A DNA stretch of 40,018 bases, taken from assembly GCA_030267245.1 (NCBI GenBank), contig JAJDJN010000004.1, positions 1-40,018 of the forward strand, read 5' to 3'. The translations under genes and the position numbers were made by a program. This document shows, piece after piece, positions 2,949 to 33,534 of this stretch; position 1 is the first letter of the stretch; every line of letters starts with the position of its first letter. This stretch comes from Desulfovibrio sp. OttesenSCG-928-A18 (GTDB lineage Bacteria > Desulfobacterota > Desulfovibrionia > Desulfovibrionales > Desulfovibrionaceae). Under the pieces are notes generated by a model, which saw only the letters and a program-made list of their open reading frames with translations, made no database searches and was not told the DNA's origin.

Positions 2949-3357
2949 CCACATGCCTGTAACATCGGCCCGCAACAGAAAGCTTTGGAGAGACGTGTTT
3001 TTAAGCGATAAGGCGCACGATGCGGGAAACCCGGACACTTGTACTTGTTTCTTTAAAACTCACGCGCAAGATTTCGCTCTTTTATGCCTTGATGAATTGG
3101 ATAAAATTTATGCCATATCGGAGGCGCAGGAGCGGCTTATTGAGGCTCTGGATGAAAAAATAAAAAGTTTTGCATATCGCAAAAAAATTGAAACCTTAGC
3201 CCGCGAAGTTGAGCATGGCTATCGGGCTGGATGGAATTATCCAAATTTAAAAAAGCGAGTCCGATCCGCAAAGGAAAGGCATCGCAAGGCAATATCTGAA
3301 GTCAAGGCATCTCGCGCCGCCATGGACGCGCTGAGAGCGGAGGTAAACCATGAGTAA
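2941..3357 (+). CDS. Hypothetical coiled-coil protein, 138 aa
   Basis: No family recognised. The ATG at 2941 is preferred over a GTG at 2926 because GGAGGT stands 7-8 bases in front of it. The second half is long, charged and helical (KKIETLAREVEHGY, LKKRVRSAKERHRKA), typical of a coiled coil. A single CTCF motif near residue 40 could bind metal only with a partner. It overlaps both neighbours by 8 bases through the same ATGAGTA arrangement, so it is part of a tightly packed early operon. Confidence 0.6.
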   Translation: MSSHMPVTSARNRKLWRDVFLSDKAHDAGNPDTCTCFFKTHAQDFALLCLDELDKIYAISEAQERLIEALDEKIKSFAYRKKIETLAREVEHGYRAGWNYPNLKKRVRSAKERHRKAISEVKASRAAMDALRAEVNHE

Positions 3358-4486
3358 AACACGCATCGAGTGGTGTGACCACACCATTAATCCTATTGTT
3401 GGTTGCTCAAAGTGCTCGCCCGGATGCGACAACTGCTATGCCGAAAAGATGGCCTGGCGGCTGTCAAAGAATCCGCTCACGGCGCAAAAGTACGCCGGGA
3501 TAGTGGATAAGAACGGCTGGACGGGGAAAATCCATTACAGCACCACGAATGCTCACCGCCATGATGAACCGCACCGTGTGCCAGGCAAAAATAAGCGTGT
3601 GTTCATTGGCAGCATGACCGACATGTTTCACCCGAATGTGGCACAAGATGCGCTCGATGAAGTCTTTGCATCTATTCTGGCCGATACGATTTTCACCAAT
3701 GGACACGGGCATAAATTCATAATGGTGACAAAGCGTGTAGACCGCATGCTTGAATATTTCGCGCCAGGGCCAGATGTACTCTTGCGCCGCTGGTGCGCAG
3801 CCGGTGACGGCTGGATTTTTACCGATGATCCCGACATTAGCTTTTCGGACTATGCCGAGGGGCAGACGATTCCGCAGCCTGAACATGAAAAGCACCCCTT
3901 GTTGCGGCACGAATACCTCTGGCCGCTGCCAAACTTTTGGGCTCTGGCGACCATCTGCAATCAGTCAGAGGCAGACGAAAAAATACCACTTCTGCTTCAG
4001 GTTCCGGCGACAAAGCGTGGCGTGAGCGTGGAGCCCATGCTGGGGGCGGTGAATATATCGCATTACCTGGAACTGGCAAATTGCCAATATGATGTGACGG
4101 GCGATATCCAACACTACGACATGCTACTCAACTGGGTGATCAGCGGCCTCGAAACCGGCCCCAATGCCCGCCCTGCGCATCCTGACTGGCTGCGGTCGCT
4201 GGCCCGGCAGTGCGCCGATGCCGGTGTGCCGTACCTGCATAAGAGCAACGGAGAGTGGCGGGAGGCGGACAGCTTCGAGCGCGGCAAGTATTGCTCCATC
4301 ATAGATTGCTACAGAAGCGCCAGGCCGGAGCAACGGCCTGAAGGAAGCGACGCCGCTTTCATAAAACAATTCTGTCAGGTGGCATTGGCTGAAGGAAGCC
4401 CGGCGGCACGGCTCATGCGCCGCGTCGGCAAAAGCAAAACCGGACGCCTCATTGATGGCGTGGAATACAATCAGTTTCCGGAGTGA
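3350..4486 (+). CDS. DUF5131 (phage Gp37/Gp68) family protein
   Basis: This 378-residue protein begins KTRIEWCDHTINPIVGC and continues with CSKCSPGCDNCYAEKMA at about residues 22-38, the hallmark of the Gp37/Gp68 (DUF5131) family of phages and mobile elements. The cysteine cluster resembles that of radical-SAM enzymes, and the length and later motifs (IGSMTDMFHP, ISGLETGPNARP) fit the family. The reaction is not known to me; a role in modified-nucleotide chemistry is often suggested. GGAGGTAAACC precedes the ATG. It sits among methylase and kinase genes, which agrees with a DNA or nucleotide modification role, but that is inference. Confidence 0.85.
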   Translation: MSKTRIEWCDHTINPIVGCSKCSPGCDNCYAEKMAWRLSKNPLTAQKYAGIVDKNGWTGKIHYSTTNAHRHDEPHRVPGKNKRVFIGSMTDMFHPNVAQDALDEVFASILADTIFTNGHGHKFIMVTKRVDRMLEYFAPGPDVLLRRWCAAGDGWIFTDDPDISFSDYAEGQTIPQPEHEKHPLLRHEYLWPLPNFWALATICNQSEADEKIPLLLQVPATKRGVSVEPMLGAVNISHYLELANCQYDVTGDIQHYDMLLNWVISGLETGPNARPAHPDWLRSLARQCADAGVPYLHKSNGEWREADSFERGKYCSIIDCYRSARPEQRPEGSDAAFIKQFCQVALAEGSPAARLMRRVGKSKTGRLIDGVEYNQFPE

Positions 4487-6659: not shown

Positions 6660-6839
6660 AGCGTCGTCCTCATTTTTTTGGCGTCGAGACTCGAAAAAGT
6701 TGGCGTCGATCTTGCGTTTTTTGGCGTCGAGACTCGAAAAAGTTGGCGTCGATCTTGCGTTTTTTGGCGTCGAGTGTCAGGATTTTTGGCGTCGAGACTC
6801 GAAAAAGTTGGCGTCGAGAGTCGGTTTTTCCAGCGTCGA
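6660..6839. repeat. Iteron-like array, GGCGTCGA core every 21-23 bp
   Basis: The 8-bp core GGCGTCGA occurs at 6680, 6702, 6723, 6745, 6766, 6789 and 6810, with AGCGTCGA at 6832 and a weaker AGCGTCGT at 6660. Steps are 20-23 bp, close to two turns of the DNA helix. Bases 6680-6722 and 6723-6765 are identical. Cores are preceded by T runs, and alternate cores are followed by GAGACTCGAAAAAG, which holds the odd palindrome TCGAGACTCGA. The period of 43 bases is not a multiple of three, so this is not a coding repeat. It resembles plasmid and phage replication iterons or a partition site. Confidence 0.8.
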
Positions 6840-6883
6840 GGGCGCGGTTTTTGCCCTGCTTCCGGGCCGTTTTCGGGGCTGGG

Positions 6884-7017
6884 CCGGGCACGAGCCCGGA
6901 CAAATGCGCTTGGAGTAGCCGTCAGCGATCCCGGTGACGGACGTGCAAGACCTCATGCTGCTGTTAATAGTAGCAACGATTCAACGGCGCAAGGCTTGCT
7001 TTGCGCCGTTGAATCGT
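6884..7017. other. Cluster of three hairpins next to the iteron array
   Basis: Three inverted repeats follow the array: CCGGGC/GCCCGG at 6884-6899 with a 4-base loop; CCGTCA/TGACGG at 6919-6940; and a perfect 17-bp arm pair at 6976-6992 and 7001-7017 with an 8-base loop. None has a T tract that would make it an ordinary intrinsic terminator. The last lies 30 bases beyond the stop of the minus-strand operon and may end its RNA, or may form part of an origin. No protein-coding gene is supported from 6660 to 7047. Confidence 0.65.
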
Positions 7018-11209: not shown

Positions 11210-11241
11210 TATGCTCCGCAAATCAAAAAGGAGTTTTGATC

Positions 11242-11952
11242 ATGAAAAACAATCAGCCTGTGCTTTCCTCGCTTTCTGTCGTCGGTGGCGTTCCCCGCGT
11301 TTCGTCGCTCGATGTGGCCCGGCATTTTGAAAAGGATCATGCCGATGTTCTTAAAGCAATCAGAAAAATTATTTCAGAGTGTCCACCGAATTTTAACGAA
11401 GGAAATTTTTCCGGCGTTGAATACTCGGATGCCAAGGGGGAAACGCGGCCCGCCTATGCCCTCACCCGTGACGGCTTTGCACTCCTGGCTATGGGCTTCA
11501 CCGGCAAGCGTGCCCTTGAATGGAAAATCAAATATATCGAAGCCTTCAACGCAATGGAAAAAGCTTTGATTGAACAGCATGTAGCACTAAGGCCCGCTCC
11601 AGCGTGCGCGATCATGGAAATGCTGCCGCCGCTTAAGCTGCACACGCGTCCTGGACAAGTCGCGCGCACAGCGACAATCAAAGAACGCGAAAGCCTGTAT
11701 GAGCCCGTCTGCGAATGGATAAAGTCTATGGACCGCCCTTGCGGCTCCGGCGGCTTTTTCCTGGGGCTGTCGATATGCGCCCACATGGCCGGCGTTGAGA
11801 GATTCTCGCAAATCCCCCAGCACGCTATAAAACCCCTTCATGCCTGGCTTGAAGAACGGATTGACGAATCGTACGCTCTGATTCAGGAACGCAGGAGGCA
11901 CGCTCGCGCCGCCCGGCTCGCTGCTATGCAGCCCGCAACCGCCATCTTGTGA
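11242..11952 (+). CDS. rha: Rha family phage regulatory protein
   Basis: The first ~115 residues match the Rha family: VSSLDVARHFEKDHADVLKAI, then RPAYALTRDGFALLAMGFTG and KRALEWKIKYIEAFNAME. Rha proteins interfere with growth or lysogeny choice in some lambdoid phages and are treated as regulators or antirepressors. The last part (about residues 150-215, RESLYEPVCEWIKSM...HMAGVERFSQIP...LHAWLEERI) is a different helical domain that also appears in the 100-aa protein at 12731 and the BRO protein at 13067. AAGGAG lies about 8 bases before the ATG at 11242. A GC hairpin terminator follows the gene. Confidence 0.85.
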   Translation: MKNNQPVLSSLSVVGGVPRVSSLDVARHFEKDHADVLKAIRKIISECPPNFNEGNFSGVEYSDAKGETRPAYALTRDGFALLAMGFTGKRALEWKIKYIEAFNAMEKALIEQHVALRPAPACAIMEMLPPLKLHTRPGQVARTATIKERESLYEPVCEWIKSMDRPCGSGGFFLGLSICAHMAGVERFSQIPQHAIKPLHAWLEERIDESYALIQERRRHARAARLAAMQPATAIL

Positions 11953-13066: not shown

Positions 13067-13771
13067 ATGACCAAGTTTCCCGCTCTCACTTTTCAGTCCA
13101 CCACTTTTGATATCGTTGATCTTGATGGGCAGCCGTGGCTACAGGCTCCTCAAATTGCAGCGGCCTTGGGATACTCGCGCCCTGACGAAATCTCGCGCCT
13201 CTACCAGCGAAATGCCGACGAGTTTACTGAAAGCATGACGCAAACTATTGAAATCGTCGCAGAACACCACTTTGACACGCCAAATGGCCTTAGCAACGGG
13301 CGAACCCGCATCTTCTCCCTGCGCGGCTGCCACCTCCTTGCCATGTTCGCCCGCACGCCGGTCGCCAAAGACTTCCGTAAGTGGGCGCTCGACATCCTGG
13401 AGAGAGAAGCGCAACAGGCTCAACGCCATCCGCTTCCCGCGAACGTCCACCCCGCGAGCCTGCTCCCAGCTTTCTTTCAGGAACTCCCCACCCTCCCGAA
13501 AGGCAACCGGGCGTCCAGCAGTCGAGAGCGCCGCGAGCTCTTTATAGCCATGCATAACTGGATAAAAACGTGGGGAGGGCACAGCACTGAAGATTACACC
13601 TTCGCTCAGGCCATATGTGCCAGGCTCGCCGGGGTCAATGAGTATAAGCTTATACCCTTTGCCTCACTTCCCGCACTCGTTAAATGGCTGGAAGAGCACA
13701 CGAAAGAAGCCTCGACCATTGAGGAGCACGCGCTGCCGGACGCCGGCGACACGCTTGGGGTCGGCTCCTAA
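13067..13771 (+). CDS. BRO-N domain antirepressor-like protein
   Basis: Residues 1-115 form a BRO-N domain (FQSTTFDIVDLDGQPWLQAPQIAAALGY, then SLRGCHLLAMFARTPVAKDFRKW), as found in phage antirepressors and baculovirus BRO proteins. The rest carries the C-terminal helical domain shared with rha and the 100-aa gene (RRELFIAMHNWIKTW...CARLAGVNEYKLIP...LVKWLEEHT). CGAAGGAG precedes the ATG. A 114-bp block (13304-13417) is about 95% identical to the BRO gene at 26783-27754 on the other strand. The likely role is to switch immunity by binding a repressor or operator; the repressor is not identified. Confidence 0.8.
   Translation: MTKFPALTFQSTTFDIVDLDGQPWLQAPQIAAALGYSRPDEISRLYQRNADEFTESMTQTIEIVAEHHFDTPNGLSNGRTRIFSLRGCHLLAMFARTPVAKDFRKWALDILEREAQQAQRHPLPANVHPASLLPAFFQELPTLPKGNRASSSRERRELFIAMHNWIKTWGGHSTEDYTFAQAICARLAGVNEYKLIPFASLPALVKWLEEHTKEASTIEEHALPDAGDTLGVGS
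13304..13417. repeat. 114-bp inverted repeat, copy in the first BRO gene
   Basis: Pairs with 27404-27517 in opposite orientation, with about six differences by eye. It encodes the BRO-N core around the conserved RIFSLRGCH...LAMFARTPVAKDFRKW. Confidence 0.8.
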
Positions 13772-26401: not shown

Positions 26402-26745
26402 CCAGCCTTGCGTCATGGATTGCGGAAGCCGGGAGGCTCGACTGCAATTTGTGCCGCAGGGTGTATGAAAACTATGGGGACGAACCCCCTTGCGCGACAT
26501 GTTATCCCGGCATCCACCCCTGGAACGAGACGGCATTCAACGTTTGCTGGAAGTGGGTCAAGGGTCAATGGCGGTCAGCGCCATCAGGGGTGCTGGCAGT
26601 TGATCTTTGCGCCATAGATATAGCCTTGCGTTACTGTGGCATAGACGAAGCGGACAAGCCCCGAGTCGCGGGGCAACTGTTGAAAATAGGTGAAGTTGTG
26701 CTTGCCGAATTCAGACGCAGGGAAGAGGCGCAGGCGAAAAATTAG
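26398..26745 (+). CDS. T part of the G-T tail chaperone (reached by frameshift)
   Basis: The frame is open without its own good start or ribosome site from just after the slippery site (LTSLASWIAEAGRLDCNLC) to 26745. It has cysteines in CNLCRRV and CATC that could bind metal, then WNETAFNVCWKWV and a helical end. It fits the T domain of tail chaperones, made only as an extension of G. It is followed by a bidirectional terminator. Confidence 0.75.
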   Translation: MTSLASWIAEAGRLDCNLCRRVYENYGDEPPCATCYPGIHPWNETAFNVCWKWVKGQWRSAPSGVLAVDLCAIDIALRYCGIDEADKPRVAGQLLKIGEVVLAEFRRREEAQAKN

Positions 26746-26777
26746 GGCCGGGGGTGACTCCCCGGCCCTCTGTTTTT
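26745..26777. terminator. Bidirectional terminator between tail chaperones and the inverted antirepressor
   Basis: Arms GGGCCGGGG (26745-26753) and CCCCGGCCC (26760-26768), then TCTGTTTTT to the right and, read on the other strand, TAATTTTTC to the left. It would end both the late tail RNA and the antirepressor RNA, in the middle of the tail gene cluster. Confidence 0.85.
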
Positions 26778-26791
26778 ATTCGTTAACGAAT
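26778..26791. promoter_or_regulatory. Dispersed palindrome copy 7 (ATTCGTTAACGAAT)
   Basis: Perfect over all 14 bases. It overlaps the stop codon of the inverted antirepressor and lies right after the terminator, not at a promoter. Confidence 0.6.
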
Positions 26792-27754
26792 GAGCCGTTC
26801 AATGCGGTTGATGTTTCTCAGCAGCAGCATTTGCATTGCGTTTTCAAGGGCTGGATAGCCCATGTTCGCGCCAGGTATGGTGGTTTCCAGTATGGTCAGG
26901 TCGTCGCGTATGCGCTCCAGGGCGCGGGTCATCGAGCCTTGCGCTGCGCGGTTTTTGGCAGGCGCGGGGGCCTGCGGTTCGGGGGCGGGAGGCAGTTGTT
27001 TCATTTTTTTCCGATCAGGTTTCGGCACGACGAGTGCAAGCGGGCCGTTTTTGGGGAGCACGTAGACGCCGCGAGATGTTGACCGCCCCTCCGCTTCGGG
27101 GAATTTGAGGTTGTAGCGGGCGTAGCCGCAGCCGAACATCCTCAGAAGCCTGGAGATGTAGCCGTCTGCCCAATCATCGGCTTCCGGCTTGCGCTGCACC
27201 AGCCATTCCCTGAAATGGTCGGCAAAGAAGCACGTTTTGATCCTGTTGCCATGGGTCATGAACGGGGTGCGGGCGCGGCAGGCGGCAATGTCGTCGGTGC
27301 TTGGCGGGTAGGCTTCCAGGTAGTCGGTAACGTCCGTCCAGAGCAGGGTGCGCGGCAGTCCGGCGATGGGTTCATCGTCAGCAATGGCCGCTTGGGGGCG
27401 CGGCTGTTGCGCTTCTCTCTCCAGGATGTCGAGCACCCACTTACGGAAGTCTTTGGCGACCGGCGTGCGGGCGAACATGGCGAGAGCGTGGCAGCCGCGC
27501 AGAGAGAAGATGCGGGTTTCCTGCGGCCCGCCAGGCGTCGGCAGCGTGACCACGGCGGTCATTGAGTCGGTGAACTCGTCGGCGTGGCGGTCGAAGAGGT
27601 TTCGGATTGATCTGCCTCCATAGGTAGGATCAAATTGACCTTCCCTTTGACTATACCCCAAAGCCTCTGCGATTTGTGGGATTTTGACCCAGGGCTGCCC
27701 GTCACGATCAATGACATCAAAAGCGGTGGATTGGAAAGCGAGAACCGTTTGCAT
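26783..27754 (-). CDS. Second BRO-N antirepressor, inverted within the tail operon
   Basis: Residues 1-120 form a BRO-N domain very like the one at 13067 (FQSTAFDVIDRDGQPWVKIPQIAEALGY, SLRGCHALAMFARTPVAKDF). The rest is different: a linker, then a domain with WTDVTDYLEAYPPSTDDIAAC, HFREWLVQRKPEADDWADGY and RGVYVLPKNGPLALVV, basic and probably DNA- or protein-binding, and a helical tail. The ATG at 27754 has GGAGG 6 bases before it, but that site lies inside a stem (27761-27828). It stands on the minus strand within plus-strand tail genes, as morons do. It may act as a second immunity switch. Confidence 0.8.
   Translation of the reverse strand: MQTVLAFQSTAFDVIDRDGQPWVKIPQIAEALGYSQREGQFDPTYGGRSIRNLFDRHADEFTDSMTAVVTLPTPGGPQETRIFSLRGCHALAMFARTPVAKDFRKWVLDILEREAQQPRPQAAIADDEPIAGLPRTLLWTDVTDYLEAYPPSTDDIAACRARTPFMTHGNRIKTCFFADHFREWLVQRKPEADDWADGYISRLLRMFGCGYARYNLKFPEAEGRSTSRGVYVLPKNGPLALVVPKPDRKKMKQLPPAPEPQAPAPAKNRAAQGSMTRALERIRDDLTILETTIPGANMGYPALENAMQMLLLRNINRIERLIR
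27404..27517. repeat. 114-bp inverted repeat, copy in the second BRO gene
   Basis: Opposite-orientation partner of 13304-13417. Recombination between the two would invert the 14 kb between them or swap antirepressor C-termini. Confidence 0.8.
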
Positions 27755-27760
27755 GAAAAC

Positions 27761-27828
27761 CTCCGAAGAACTTCTCAATTGGCATTCGCGAAATGCAAAA
27801 TGCCGGGTGTTGAGAACGACCTTCGGAG
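27761..27828 (-). promoter_or_regulatory. Leader stem-loop covering the antirepressor ribosome-binding site
   Basis: Three nested perfect arm pairs: CTCCGAAG/CTTCGGAG (27761-27768, 27821-27828), TCTCAA/TTGAGA (27773-27778, 27810-27815) and GGCATT/AATGCC (27781-27786, 27799-27804). In the minus-strand RNA, GGAG of the ribosome-binding site is part of the last outer arm, six bases from the ATG. Confidence 0.7.
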
Positions 27829-27880
27829 TCGCCGCAGGGCTTTAGGCCAAAGCCATTGGACATAACCTGCACACCCGGCA
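27801..27880. other. Overlapping inverted repeats upstream of the antirepressor
   Basis: TGCCGGGTGT (27801-27810) and ACACCCGGCA (27871-27880) are perfect 10-bp arms and enclose a further hairpin, GGCTTT-AGGCC-AAAGCC (27838-27854). The first arm overlaps the leader stem, so the two structures exclude each other. The rest of the gap to 28085 holds no gene; it contains dispersed palindrome copy 8. Confidence 0.6.
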
Positions 27881-28040
27881 TCATAGCCGTAAGCGCCTCA
27901 GCCAAATTCTAGGCGCAAAAAAAGCCAGTCTGTCGGGTTGGCGTATCCGCCGAAGGGTGTTTCTCACGCACCGTGAAGGCAGCTTGCCAAATCCCGATGG
28001 AAATGTCAAGTTCTATAAAAATGAGGCGTAAGACAATATT

Positions 28041-28054
28041 ATTCGAATACGAAT
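28041..28054. promoter_or_regulatory. Dispersed palindrome copy 8 (ATTCGAATACGAAT)
   Basis: Perfect arms. It directly follows TATTAT, a possible -10 box, 32 bases before the start of the HIRAN-HhH gene. A promoter for the moron genes under the same control is likely. Confidence 0.55.
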
Positions 28055-28085
28055 AAAAAGTAAAGGGAAAAGCGGAGACTGTGGC

Positions 28086-28928
28086 ATGTTCAAGCTTTTG
28101 AAAAAAATACTTTCAAGAGGTGCCCGCACAAGGGGCACCCATAACTGTTTTGGCGGTAGAACTTTTGACGTTGATTCTCCAGAAGCCCAACGGACCATTA
28201 GAGCCTTCTCTCCAAGGCCTCTTGCAGATACGGCAGAGGATGTCGAACTTCATTCCGACCGCTACGGATATGACTATTCCCCGCCCTCCAATGATGCATG
28301 TAAATTTTTAAAGAGAAGTTTGGTGCCTATCTTTCCTGCATCAGGATATGGATTTTATCGAGAACGGCAAAGTGGGTGGTTTAGAATCAGAGGCGGATGG
28401 TTTGAAAACGTTGATGGAAGCGACAGGAACAATGAGGCATCGAATGTTCGCGTGGGAGATTTTTTGTATTTCTTTTGGGAAAAAGATAACGATAGCGACC
28501 AACACGCGGTCGCCGTGTTTAGGCTCCCCAAAAATCGGGGTCATTTCAAAGAGAATAACCAGATAGGCTATGTGCCAAGAGACAAGAGCGAAAGGATACT
28601 GGAAATTTTCAACTCAGGACACAGGGTGCTTGCAGAGGTTAGAAGGAAATATGCGCAAGGGGATGGGGGCATTAAAATAATTGTAACAACATATCGTTTT
28701 GAGGAGAGGGGCGATAATGTAGTATTTAGAATCACGCCAAAAGATGACTTGGCGATACGCTTGTTACGAAGCAAGGAGATCAGACGTCAGGCATTTGAGA
28801 ATTTAGGATTGGCCGGCTTGTTAAATTATGAACGGTTAAAAGCGTCTTCTGATAAAGAAATTCTCTCTATAGAAGGCGTTGGCAAAAAGACTTTGTCTAT
28901 TCTAAGGGGGCTTAGGGAGCCGCGTTAG
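28086..28928 (+). CDS. HIRAN-like and helix-hairpin-helix protein (accessory gene)
   Basis: A 280-aa accessory protein. About residues 110-210 resemble a HIRAN domain: RVGDFLYFFWEKDNDSDQHAVAVFR, then NNQIGYVPRDKSERILEIFNSGHRVLAEV. HIRAN domains bind DNA ends or damaged DNA in helicases such as HLTF. The C-terminus (LLNYERLKASSDKEILSIEG followed by VGKKTLSILRGL) looks like a helix-hairpin-helix DNA-binding unit. The N-terminal third is not recognised. The gene is clearly AT-richer than the tail genes around it, with its own leader and palindrome copy 8, typical of a moron. A role in DNA repair, exclusion of other phages or anti-defence is possible; none is shown. Confidence 0.65.
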   Translation: MFKLLKKILSRGARTRGTHNCFGGRTFDVDSPEAQRTIRAFSPRPLADTAEDVELHSDRYGYDYSPPSNDACKFLKRSLVPIFPASGYGFYRERQSGWFRIRGGWFENVDGSDRNNEASNVRVGDFLYFFWEKDNDSDQHAVAVFRLPKNRGHFKENNQIGYVPRDKSERILEIFNSGHRVLAEVRRKYAQGDGGIKIIVTTYRFEERGDNVVFRITPKDDLAIRLLRSKEIRRQAFENLGLAGLLNYERLKASSDKEILSIEGVGKKTLSILRGLREPR

Positions 28929-29041
28929 CCGGATTCCCCCCCCTTGGCTTGTCTACTGAGCTTTGTCTTCGCCCACATGATGCAAGATTCCTCGCCACGC
29001 CGCGTCAGCGAATTGCCTACGAGTTAATGGAGGGAACGACC

Positions 29042-29581
29042 GTGACCAACTGTGTAAAGTGCGGTGCCAGCATGAGGCTATTCGGAAAAAATCAACCCTC
29101 AGACGAGTTGGCCAACGAAAGACTGAGAAGTCAGGGGTACGACATCGAATATGGTATGTGTCGTGCTTGCGCTGAAGTTGTCTACGGGCAAATCAAAGCT
29201 GGCGAGATGGCTCCCGATGAAGCAAAAGTTGCCGAGGAGTATAAACAAGACGCGGTACCAAGTGTTAATGTGTACACCATTTGCCCTCAATATGTGGACT
29301 TTGCGTACATCGGCATCGTCTCTTCCCATGTTGCCCTCGGTACTGGCCTAATCAGCCACGCTCTATCCTCTTTAACTGACTTTTTTGGTCAGGAGTCGAG
29401 CACATACAGCGATAAGTTACAGGCGGCCGAGGGAGCCTGCCTCGCTAAGTTGAAAATCCGTGCGCATGAAATGGGGGCTGATATGGTTATTGGGATGCAG
29501 ACTACATACACCGAACTGACGAGTGGTCACGGCATGCTGTTGGTCTGCATGGCAGGAACGGCGGTAAAGCAAAAGCAATAG
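29042..29581 (+). CDS. Zinc-ribbon plus YbjQ/UPF0145-like protein (accessory gene)
   Basis: The N-terminus has CVKCGASM and, 30-odd residues later, CRACAEVV, a possible zinc ribbon. The second half (YIGIVSSHVALGTGLISHAL, SDKLQAAEGACLAKLKIRAHEM, GADMVIGMQTTY, then LLVCMAGTAV) follows the YbjQ/UPF0145 fold, a small pentameric family of unclear function. GTG at 29042 is chosen because GGAGGG lies 7 bases before it and the ribbon begins at once; a TTG-started longer frame from 28949 is possible. Second gene of the moron pair. Confidence 0.7.
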   Translation: MTNCVKCGASMRLFGKNQPSDELANERLRSQGYDIEYGMCRACAEVVYGQIKAGEMAPDEAKVAEEYKQDAVPSVNVYTICPQYVDFAYIGIVSSHVALGTGLISHALSSLTDFFGQESSTYSDKLQAAEGACLAKLKIRAHEMGADMVIGMQTTYTELTSGHGMLLVCMAGTAVKQKQ

Positions 29582-29659
29582 AAATGGCTGGGGAGTCTCA
29601 GTCATTAAGCCTTCACCCCAATAGGGGGCTCCTGCTTCATAATTTGATTTATCTACCCC

Positions 29660-29675
29660 ACCCCCATATGGGGGT
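29660..29675. other. 16-bp perfect palindrome after the YbjQ-like gene
   Basis: ACCCCC-ATAT-GGGGGT, with a second C/G hairpin (CCCC-AATA-GGGG, 29616-29627) before it. No T tract follows, so these may be weak terminators or pausing sites closing the moron RNA. Confidence 0.45.
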
Positions 29676-29691
29676 CCGCACCCTTGTCCTT

Positions 29692-29750
29692 TAAGCCATA
29701 AGCGCCATACCTTTGCCATAATCAGGCAGGAGTATGGCGCTTATGGCTTA
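29692..29750 (+). promoter_or_regulatory. 19-bp perfect inverted repeat enclosing the tape-measure start
   Basis: Arms 29692-29710 and 29732-29750 are exact reverse complements with a 21-base gap. The right arm contains the first ATG (29734) and the second in-frame ATG; the ribosome-binding site CAGGAG lies in the loop. Confidence 0.8.
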
Positions 29751-32700
29751 TCGCATTTCTACCATCCAGGCGGCCGTTGTTGCGGACACCAGACAATTCG
29801 ATCTGAGCTTGAGAGAAGCCCAGAAGACGGCGGAAGCGTTTTATCAGCGTTCTGCCAAGAGTTTCGGGCGGCTGGAGAAAGACCTGCTCGCAATGAAGTC
29901 TGCCACCGGCATGACTGAAAAAGAGTTTGCCAAGCTGCATGCGGCCATGAAGGACGGCACCGCGCTCTCCGCAGCCAGCCGTTTCCTGGATAAGGTAGCC
30001 CGTTCCGCCAGTCTCACTGACGCCGAGTTTCGCAAGTTGGAGCGCAGTATGGGCCTTGCCGGCAAAAGCGGGCTCGCCAACCGCTTCAAGAACGACGCGC
30101 AGGCCGCGCAATCCTACCAAAGCGCCCTCGCTGGCCTCAAGACCGCTATAACGGGCTATCTCAGCATTAATATGCTGCGAGATGTCGCCAAAACCAGCGT
30201 TGATCTCGCGTCCATGCAGAAGACCTTCTATGCCCTGACCGGCTCCACGGAGGGGGCCCGGGCTGAAATTGCGTATCTGCGCGATGAATCGCAGCGCCTT
30301 GGCCTGGACTTTTTCGCATTGACTGAGAGCTTCAAGGGTTTTTCCGCCGCAGGCAAGACAGCGAGCATGGATGCCGCGCAAGTGCGCGACATTTTCACGT
30401 CCGTTACCGAGGCCTCTACGGTACTTGGCCTGAACGCTGACCGGACCAAGCTCGCCCTGTACGCCCTGGAGCAGATGCTTTCGAAGGGCGCCGTATCCAT
30501 GGAAGAATTGCGTCGGCAGTTGGGCGACCAGTTGCCCGGCGCGTTCCAGCTTGGCGCTAAGGCCATGGACTTGACCACGCAGGAGTTTTCCAAACTGGTA
30601 GAAACGGGTCGTCTTGCCTCGGCTGATTTCTTGCCCAGATTTGCGGAAGAGTTGCGCAAGGCTTACGGCCCCGGCCTGGCCGAGGCCATGAAGACACCGC
30701 GTGCCGAAATTCAGCGCCTCATGAACGAGCTCACTTTTGCCAAGGTGCAGATAGGCGAAGGCGGCTTTTTGGCGGGGTTGTCCAGTGGAGCAAAAGAACT
30801 GGCAGAATCCTTGCGTTCGGCAGAGGTGAAACAATCGCTTCGTTCTCTTGGCGAAGGGTTGGGAGCGGTAACGGGTATTCTGGCCAAGGGGGTGGCAGTA
30901 GCGGTCGAGAACGCTGATGCTATAAAAATGCTCGGGGTAGCCTACCTTGGCTATAAAGGCTTTGCTATAGCATCGGAAGCGGCGACAGCCCGTCTCGTTG
31001 CCACTGGGGCCATAGCTTCGCGGAGTGAAATAACCAGAAGCGCTGCTATCGGAGTGACTATTAAGAGCTTCAGAGAAAAAGCGCTTGCAGTCAAGAATTC
31101 AATAACGGCGACAAACGCTGCCATAACTGCGGACTTGAATGCTGCTAAAGCGTCTCACCAGTCCACGCTGGCTGTCCAGCAAGAAGCTTTGGCTCGCGCG
31201 AGTCTTGCAAAATATATAGCTGCAAATTCAGTGGGGTCAAAGGAACAGGCGTTTGCATTTAATCTATTGGCGAAGGCGGAGCGGGAATACATAGGGCTTA
31301 CCGGCGCGGCTTCCAGAGCTACTGCGCAACTCACCGCAGCGCAGGCTCGAGCTACGGTGGCGGCGCGTAGCATGGCCGGTGCGCAATCCCTGTTACTTGC
31401 TGCCGGTCGAGGAGTTCTTAGCTTTTTCGGCGGCCCCTGGGGTTTGGCCCTGACTGCGGCCACGGTGGGGGTATTTGCGCTGTCCACTGCGGAGACCGAT
31501 GCGGACAAGGTCGCCAGAGAATACGGTGTTACCCTGGACGAAATTGCCGAGCGTTATAAGGCTCTGGCACTCGAAGCACAAGCCACAACCGGGGAAACGA
31601 ACCACCTTACGGAGTCACATCGCAAGGCCATTGCCGAGCAGCGTGCGCTCAAGCAGCAAGAGATAGACATCCTGAAAGAGCGCCTGGCGGCAAGGAGGGA
31701 ATTGCTCGCATTCTTTGACGATACCGATGTGTCGGACATGGATGCAACACTTCTCGGCTCATCCGGCTTTGCCGAAATTGAATTTTTGAGCTCGGCAGTC
31801 ACGGAATTTTACAAAGAATACAAAGAGGTAGTCAAACTTTTTGACGAGCAGTCCATCTCCGCCAAAGAAGCAGAGTTGCGCCTGGGCAATCTGCGTATGA
31901 AACTTGAAGAGCTCGCCAAAGCTGACGGCGGTTTTTCGTATCATTCGCAGGAAGCGCGAAATCTGGGCGACGAAATCAACGAGACCCTGACCATATTTGT
32001 CGCTCTTATGAAAAAGATGGGTGAAGCCGAGAGCACCACCCCTTTTGCGAGCCATATCAAGGCCTTTCAAGAGTATAACAAGAAGGGCGCCGAGTTGCTT
32101 GGCAAGTGGGCGGACGAGTCCGACAGCGGCAAGCGGCAGAAGCTGGACGACGATCTCAAGCTGATGAAAGACTACGTCGAGCGCCAGCGGGCTACCCTGG
32201 AAGGCAACGACGATGCACTGGCACAGCTTGCGAAAAAGGCGGCGCAAGCTGAAGAGGTGTACCAGAAAAAACTCAAATCCCTCTCTCGCGGGTCTTCGGG
32301 CGCTTCCGGTCGCACGGCTGGTTCCATTGAAAGGACCATCGACAGCTTGACCGCCAAAGTGGAAGGCCTGCGCGGCAAGCTGCACGAAGACGCCGGCGAA
32401 ACCTACCTCTCCAGATTGAACAAGGATATCGCGGACGCGGAGCGCGGTATTGCAAAGCTCAGTGGGGCGCAAAAAGTTCAGGCCCAGGAACTGCTCAAAG
32501 AATACCGTGCCCTGGGCGAACTGATGGCTGCCAAGGAAAACGAGAAACAGTTCCAGAAAAATATGCAAGTCCGCTTGGACTTTGAGCGGGAATACGCAGA
32601 CATGACGGGCTTGACTGCGGATGCCGTCTCCCGGAGCCTGCAACGTCAGTACGAGGATTACAGAAAAGCCGGCGTTGATATCGTCCAGTTGGAGGAATGG

Positions 32701-33534
32701 AAAGCCGACAAGATCATGCGCGCCAGTCGCACGGCTGCGGACGGCATGGCAAGGGCTTTCAAAGACTACGCCCTCGACGCCATGGATGCCGCAAAAAACA
32801 TGGAGGACTTGGTAGGCAGCACTTTTTCCGGCATGGAAGATGCCCTGGTCAATTTCGTCACCAGGGGCAAGCTGAGTTTTACCGAACTGGCGAACTCCAT
32901 TATCGCGGACCTGGCCCGCATCGCCATCCGGCAGGGCATCACCGGCCCGCTGGCCAGTGGGCTCAGTTCGGCGCTGGGCGGGCTGTTTGGCGGCATGGCG
33001 TCTTCCTTTACCGGCGGGTCATACTCTGGCCCCCTGAGTACAGGCGGGTACTCCACGCCCAACTTGTCCGGGTACGTGGTCCCTTCCGCCAAGGGTAACA
33101 CCTTTTATGCCGGTTCCGGACTATCCCGGTATACCAACTCGATAGTTGACAAACCCACTCTTTTTGCCTTCGCCAAGGGCGGCATCCCCGGCGTCGGGAT
33201 GATGGGCGAAAAAGCCGGCTCTCCCGGTGAAGCCGTCATGCCGCTTGTGCGCGACAGCCGGGGAGATCTGGCCGTGAGCGCCGTGGGCATGACCGGGAAC
33301 TCCACTGTCAGAGCCCCTGTGCAGGTCAGCATCCAGGTGCACAATAACAGCAGTGCTGAAGTTACCGCGCAGGCCTCGCAAGACGCCTTTGGGAACATCA
33401 GCATCGACATGATTGTTGATCAGGTTGAATCGCGTATGGCCGGCAAGGCCATGCGCGGCATGTCGCCCTATGCGCGGGCCATCGACAAGACACGCGGCAC
33501 CAGTGACGCCATGCGTAGCCTGAGGAGGGTATGA
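29734..33534 (+). CDS. Tail tape measure protein
   Basis: At 1266 aa this is the longest gene, in the usual place after the chaperones. The N-terminal part (TIQAAVVADTRQFDLSLREAQ; LYALEQMLSKGAVSMEELRRQLGDQLPGAFQLGAKAMDLTTQEF) matches the tape measure domain of lambda-like tails. Long helical and coiled segments follow (about residues 570-1000), with hydrophobic stretches near residues 380-400 and 545-590. The end (FVTRGKLSFTELANSIIADLARIA, then FAKGGIP and GEAVMPLVR) matches the lambda H C-terminal family. Its length sets tail length. The start codon lies in the 19-bp hairpin. Confidence 0.92.
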   Translation: MALMAYRISTIQAAVVADTRQFDLSLREAQKTAEAFYQRSAKSFGRLEKDLLAMKSATGMTEKEFAKLHAAMKDGTALSAASRFLDKVARSASLTDAEFRKLERSMGLAGKSGLANRFKNDAQAAQSYQSALAGLKTAITGYLSINMLRDVAKTSVDLASMQKTFYALTGSTEGARAEIAYLRDESQRLGLDFFALTESFKGFSAAGKTASMDAAQVRDIFTSVTEASTVLGLNADRTKLALYALEQMLSKGAVSMEELRRQLGDQLPGAFQLGAKAMDLTTQEFSKLVETGRLASADFLPRFAEELRKAYGPGLAEAMKTPRAEIQRLMNELTFAKVQIGEGGFLAGLSSGAKELAESLRSAEVKQSLRSLGEGLGAVTGILAKGVAVAVENADAIKMLGVAYLGYKGFAIASEAATARLVATGAIASRSEITRSAAIGVTIKSFREKALAVKNSITATNAAITADLNAAKASHQSTLAVQQEALARASLAKYIAANSVGSKEQAFAFNLLAKAEREYIGLTGAASRATAQLTAAQARATVAARSMAGAQSLLLAAGRGVLSFFGGPWGLALTAATVGVFALSTAETDADKVAREYGVTLDEIAERYKALALEAQATTGETNHLTESHRKAIAEQRALKQQEIDILKERLAARRELLAFFDDTDVSDMDATLLGSSGFAEIEFLSSAVTEFYKEYKEVVKLFDEQSISAKEAELRLGNLRMKLEELAKADGGFSYHSQEARNLGDEINETLTIFVALMKKMGEAESTTPFASHIKAFQEYNKKGAELLGKWADESDSGKRQKLDDDLKLMKDYVERQRATLEGNDDALAQLAKKAAQAEEVYQKKLKSLSRGSSGASGRTAGSIERTIDSLTAKVEGLRGKLHEDAGETYLSRLNKDIADAERGIAKLSGAQKVQAQELLKEYRALGELMAAKENEKQFQKNMQVRLDFEREYADMTGLTADAVSRSLQRQYEDYRKAGVDIVQLEEWKADKIMRASRTAADGMARAFKDYALDAMDAAKNMEDLVGSTFSGMEDALVNFVTRGKLSFTELANSIIADLARIAIRQGITGPLASGLSSALGGLFGGMASSFTGGSYSGPLSTGGYSTPNLSGYVVPSAKGNTFYAGSGLSRYTNSIVDKPTLFAFAKGGIPGVGMMGEKAGSPGEAVMPLVRDSRGDLAVSAVGMTGNSTVRAPVQVSIQVHNNSSAEVTAQASQDAFGNISIDMIVDQVESRMAGKAMRGMSPYARAIDKTRGTSDAMRSLRRV

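What the first reader, a model, noticed from the sequence alone, without database searches (positions are those of the whole stretch)
29692..29750. 19-bp perfect inverted repeat enclosing the tape-measure start codon
The right arm holds both candidate ATGs and the ribosome site is in the loop. In RNA this would be a very stable hairpin that hides the start of the longest gene. The sense may be to delay tape measure synthesis, to terminate moron RNA read-through, or it may be a mark left by the insertion of the moron cassette.
Basis: seen in the sequence. Interest (0 to 1): 0.7.

Follow-up and report, generated by a model that had tools for sequence, protein, structure and literature searches.

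The report
Hairpin hiding a phage tail-gene start
In a bacterial prophage, the start of the gene for the tail "ruler" protein lies inside a perfect 19-base-pair hairpin that should block its translation from any RNA running in from the genes inserted just upstream, and a relative without those genes keeps one side of the hairpin but not the other, which suggests the second side was copied from the first.

Summary
The arms 29692-29710 and 29732-29750 are perfectly complementary over 19 bp, the longest such repeat in the window; none of 200 simulated sequences exceeded 15 bp. The RNA folds at -42 kcal/mol (z -9). Both ATGs and most of the Shine-Dalgarno (SD) sequence are paired; the SD is in an apical stem, not a free loop. 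Homologues indicate the second ATG (29743) is the original start.

One close relative was found (L070, a viral contig; tape-measure N-terminus 71% identical) and it lacks the inserted gene cassette. It keeps the inner left arm (CGCCATAC, 8/8), the A+T-rich loop and an 8-bp hairpin that hides the SD, but its right arm does not pair. So the left arm is not a scar of the cassette. The right arm is the odd one out, probably a copy of the left made by template switching.

The most likely role resembles T4 gene e. Read-through RNA from the cassette, which has no terminator before the tape-measure gene, carries the left arm and is silenced. Tape-measure protein would come from RNAs starting just downstream of the left arm, where weak promoter-like elements are conserved. 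The promoter and the regulation are inferred, not shown. The hairpin is not an intrinsic terminator.

The parts
29692..29710 (+). Left arm of the 19-bp perfect inverted repeat; its inner 8 nt (29703-29710, CGCCATAC) are identical in relative L070
29732..29750 (+). Right arm; holds ATG 29734 and ATG 29743; only 8/19 identical to L070, including a 3-nt length difference before the start codon; inferred derived arm
29712..29730 (+). Apical stem-loop (29712-29717 paired with 29725-29730) that takes in most of the SD; the equivalent in L070 is an 8-bp stem with the SD fully paired
29728..29732 (+). Shine-Dalgarno AGGAG of the tape-measure gene
   Evidence: sequence
29743..33534 (+). Tail tape-measure gene (ATG 29743 favoured; ATG 29734 would add MAL in frame)
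29684..29711 (+). Candidate promoter A: TTGTCC - 16 nt - CATACC; elements kept in L070 as TTGCCC - 16 nt - CATACT; weak match to consensus (7/12 and 8/12)
   Evidence: sequence; inference
29714..29722 (+). Candidate promoter B: extended -10 TGCCATAAT (L070 TGCAATAAT); four such sites in the window against 3.05 expected, so weak alone
   Evidence: inference
29661..29676 (+). Upstream perfect palindrome ACCCCCATATGGGGGT (approximate coordinates), roughly aligned with an AACCCC/GGGGTT hairpin in L070
   Evidence: similarity marginal: 26 of 500 shuffles as good
26744..26769 (.). Intrinsic-terminator-like hairpin, T-tracts on both strands, between the DUF1799 gene and the inserted cassette; L070 has a GC-rich stem followed by CTTTTTAT at the same place
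26783..27754 (-). Cassette gene: Bro-N domain protein, opposite strand (start codon inferred)
28086..28928 (+). Cassette gene: HIRAN-domain protein
28949..29581 (+). Cassette gene: YbjQ-like protein; no + strand terminator-like site between its end and the tape-measure start

Best explanation
It is an RNA hairpin that closes the tape-measure start on long transcripts. Step 1 (computed): any RNA that contains the left arm folds so that the SD and both ATGs are paired. Step 2 (anatomy): the HIRAN and YbjQ cassette genes sit on the same strand just upstream with no recognisable terminator before the tape-measure gene, so their RNA should run into it; the hairpin would keep that RNA from making tape-measure protein when the late genes are off. 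Step 3 (inferred): productive tape-measure mRNA starts downstream of the left arm, from promoter-like elements inside the structure that are kept in L070, and so lacks the hairpin; this is the logic of T4 gene e. Origin (inferred): a small SD-hiding hairpin already present in the ancestor primed a template switch in replication, which copied the left arm into the right arm and made the stem perfect, with the upstream ATG as a by-product.
For: Stem strength and pairing of the start. L070, without the cassette, keeps CGCCATAC, TTGC.ATAAT.A and GCAGGAGT and an 8-bp stem in which the SD has P(unpaired) 0.001. Left arm 14/19 identical to L070 (10/19 by MAFFT), right arm 8/19, next 23 coding bases 18/23. 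Terminator-like structure between DUF1799 and tape-measure gene in both phages, which calls for a promoter or antitermination beyond it. No + strand terminator-like site between 28346 and 30607. RNA starting at 29728 has the SD largely open (mean 0.64). T4 precedent: e, soc, 49, I-TevI (PMC3014915). Template switching makes perfect hairpins in one event; intrastrand events follow the 5' base (PMC8794818).
Against: Only one close relative exists in the collections, so the direction of change rests on two sequences. The promoter elements are weak matches, and candidate B is expected by chance. With candidate B the leader would be only about 14 nt. Even RNA without the left arm keeps ATG 29743 largely paired (P(unpaired) 0.1-0.3). 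No transcript data. The apical stem shows no compensatory change and is weaker in the window than in L070 (-5.9 vs -10.4 kcal/mol).
Confidence: 0.42

Rival explanations
1. Mutational by-product: a recent template switch made the stem, with no selected function; it lowers tape-measure expression and the prophage tolerates it, is impaired or is defective.
For: Perfect 19-bp match with one arm unlike the relative fits a single recent event; perfection implies recency or selection and the data cannot separate them. No relative shares the full stem.
Against: Tape-measure ORF is intact at 1266 aa and all tail genes examined are open; the leader block is conserved in L070 although the two phages are about 69% identical in DNA, so the region is constrained.
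Confidence: 0.3
2. RNase III processing site: the 26-bp stem is cut to separate cassette RNA from tape-measure RNA.
For: Stem length is in the range of RNase III substrates (general knowledge); position between two transcription units.
Against: Cuts within the right arm would separate the SD from, or destroy, the start codon, so processing would not yield a translatable tape-measure mRNA.
Confidence: 0.1
3. Conserved SD-hiding hairpin that only lowers tape-measure output on the ordinary late transcript (a dosage control), opened by ribosomes or a factor.
For: L070 without the cassette also has its SD paired; tape-measure protein is needed in few copies (general knowledge).
Against: A -42 kcal/mol stem is far beyond a modest attenuator; a terminator-like structure lies upstream of the gene in both phages.
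Confidence: 0.12
4. DNA operator: palindromic binding site for a regulator rather than an RNA element.
For: Perfect dyad symmetry; 12 sites within 3 mismatches of the core GCCATAAGCGCCAT against 5.5 expected.
Against: Those other sites are scattered through the window, mostly in coding sequence, with no dyad; L070 lacks the dyad.
Confidence: 0.04
5. Intrinsic terminator or scar of cassette insertion.
For: Position at the right edge of the cassette.
Against: No T-tract after the stem and not listed by the terminator scan; the left arm aligns to the leader of a relative that lacks the cassette.
Confidence: 0.02

Closest known systems
T4 gene e (and soc, 49, I-TevI) start-hiding hairpins on early read-through RNA (PMC3014915)
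   Same: SD and start codon paired in a helix on long RNAs running in from upstream; promoter-like elements within the upstream strand of the helix so that short RNAs would escape
   Different: Gene is a tape measure in a siphovirus-type prophage; the source of read-through would be cassette genes; promoters only suggested, and not T4 late type; 19-bp perfect stem; regulation not shown
Template-switch (quasipalindrome) hairpins (PMC8794818; PMC7202029, abstract only)
   Same: Perfect inverted repeat at a place where the relative has a short hairpin; cluster of changes plus a 3-nt length difference in one arm; 5' arm kept
   Different: Single relative, no outgroup, so direction is parsimony only

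Membership tests
T4 gene e-type start-hiding hairpin | SD and/or AUG paired in a stable helix on the long RNA | tested here: met
   each base of both ATGs at P(unpaired) 0.001 or less, SD mostly paired
T4 gene e-type start-hiding hairpin | Read-through RNA from upstream genes reaches the start | tested here: inconclusive
   No + strand terminator-like site between YbjQ and the tape-measure gene; no transcript data
T4 gene e-type start-hiding hairpin | A promoter within or after the 5' strand of the helix gives RNA without the hairpin | tested here: inconclusive
   Weak -35/-10-like and extended -10 elements conserved in L070
T4 gene e-type start-hiding hairpin | Measured drop in translation of the long RNA | not testable with these tools
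   needs a reporter
Template-switch hairpin | One arm kept from the ancestor, the other replaced by its reverse complement in one cluster | tested here: inconclusive
   Left arm 14/19 (10/19 in MAFFT), right arm 8/19 to L070 with 3-nt length difference; no outgroup
Intrinsic terminator | GC-rich stem directly followed by a T-tract | tested here: not met
   right arm followed by TCGCATTTCT, left arm on the other strand by AAGGACAAGG; not listed
Known structured RNA family | Match to an Rfam model at gathering score | tested here: not met
   no match in the window

The most novel reading that the evidence does not exclude
A template switch turned a small conserved SD-hiding hairpin into a complete translational lock on the tape-measure gene, and the lock was kept because the cassette had brought read-through transcription into the tail operon: a one-step mutation insulating a late gene from cargo-gene transcription in a prophage.
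Probability: 0.2. Interest if true: 0.6.

Novelty: new member of a known kind. Interest (0 to 1): 0.4.

Why it matters
If right, it shows how a temperate phage can host expressed cargo genes in the middle of its late operon without making the downstream late protein: an RNA lock rather than a terminator. It would also be a natural example of a regulatory hairpin at a start codon built in one replication error. Both points can be tested with simple reporters and by sequencing close relatives.

Tried and rejected
Exact search for the arm in viral contigs: 15 stretches, none with the inverted repeat, chance matches in other genes. Tape-measure protein searches in phage records, viral contigs and genome contigs gave only distant relatives (about 25-46% identity) whose starts do not inform on the arms. 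Capsid relatives mostly have other tail modules. Leader pattern in viral contigs and 288 genomes of the family: only L070 and the window itself. G009:C169 has a 54% identical major tail protein but other genes downstream, so it is no outgroup. Antisense ORF 29417-29719 considered and dropped as spurious. Assembly artefact thought unlikely: 19 bp is short, and both flanks continue into sequence homologous to L070.

Full report
Observation. Counting one mismatch and six more pairs the arms are 26 nt with a 7-nt loop. It is the longest perfect inverted repeat in the window; 200 Markov simulations of the window gave at most 15 bp, and 466 kb of other viral contigs held only one 16-bp A+T-rich repeat, seen in three related contigs. 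The RNA folds at -42.2 kcal/mol, z -9.1. In a 219-nt read-through RNA each base of both ATGs is unpaired with probability 0.001 or less, and four of the five bases of the SD AGGAG are paired. Around the other starts examined in the window the mean is -17.7 kcal/mol, sd 6.5. The SD is in an apical stem, not in a free loop.

Start codon. Homologues begin with M-x-x-R-x-S-T-I-Q-like sequence (L070) or M-x-x-x-I-x-x-I (more distant ones), so ATG 29743 (MAYRISTIQ) is the likely original start; ATG 29734 adds MAL. The gene is a tail tape measure.

Surroundings. Upstream lie the DUF1799 tail gene, a terminator-like hairpin with T-tracts on both strands (26744-26769), a Bro-N gene on the opposite strand, then a HIRAN gene and a YbjQ-like gene on the tape-measure strand. 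G+C dips to about 0.44-0.50 over the HIRAN and YbjQ genes. No + strand terminator-like site lies between YbjQ and the tape-measure gene, so cassette RNA probably runs into it (inference).

Relative. Searches of phages, plasmids, viral contigs and genomes gave one close relative of this region, L070 (IMGVR_UViG_3300000062_000034): major tail protein 78%, tape-measure N-terminus 71% identical. It has no cassette: the tape-measure gene follows the DUF1799 gene after about 150 bp. By global alignment the left arm is 14/19 identical, the right arm 8/19 with a 3-nt length difference, and the following 23 coding bases 18/23. MAFFT gives the outer left arm 2/11 rather than 6/11, so the robust part is the inner octamer. 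L070 has its own 8-bp stem, ACTCTTGC/GCAGGAGT, with the SD fully paired (P(unpaired) 0.001), and its start codon is partly open.

Origin. Since the left octamer exists in L070 without a partner, the simplest history is that the small hairpin came first and the right arm was rewritten as the reverse complement of the left. A template switch does this in one step; such events are documented to create and perfect RNA hairpins, and intrastrand ones follow the 5' base (PMC8794818). The extra upstream ATG would be the copy of the conserved CCAT. With two sequences this is parsimony, not proof. The left arm is not a scar of the cassette.

Mechanism. The stem lacks a T-tract and is not an intrinsic terminator. 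Its predictable effect is to stop translation of any RNA that contains the left arm. T4 genes e, soc, 49 and I-TevI work that way, and for gene e late promoters in the upstream strand of the helix give short RNAs that escape; lysozyme synthesis from the long RNA falls about 100-fold (PMC3014915). Here a terminator-like structure lies between DUF1799 and the tape-measure gene in both phages, so a promoter or antitermination beyond it is needed. Two weak promoter-like sites are conserved: TTG[T/C]CC-16-CATAC[C/T] and TGC[C/A]ATAAT. RNA from either would start after the left arm. RNA starting at 29728 has the SD mostly open, though ATG 29743 remains largely paired. Shown: the structure, its rarity, the partial conservation. 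Inferred: the promoter, silencing of read-through, the template switch.

Rivals. The strongest is a by-product without function. RNase III processing, dosage control and a DNA operator are less likely for the reasons listed in the rival explanations.

Verdict. A real and unusual structure, most likely a new member of a known kind (start-hiding hairpin); its origin by template switching in step with a cassette is the more novel reading, and it is untested.

Noticed in passing
6976-7017: Second strongest inverted repeat of the window: 20-nt arms, 95% complementary (17 bp perfect), 2-nt loop, in a stretch without an obvious gene.
   Followed up: no
6674-6853: Tandem repeats (periods 22, 43 and 65) built on TTGGCGTCGAGACTCGAAAAAG.
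   Followed up: partly
26744-28928: Cassette between the DUF1799 and tape-measure genes: Bro-N gene on the opposite strand, HIRAN gene, YbjQ-like gene; absent in L070. A second Bro-N gene lies at 13067-13771 and a Rha gene at 11236-11952.
   Followed up: partly
L072 (G009:C169): Same-genus contig with a related major tail protein (54%) followed by a terminator-like hairpin and different downstream sequence, apparently another insertion place in the tail operon.
   Followed up: partly
3350-4486: DUF5131-family gene (E 1e-63) in the left half of the phage.
   Followed up: no
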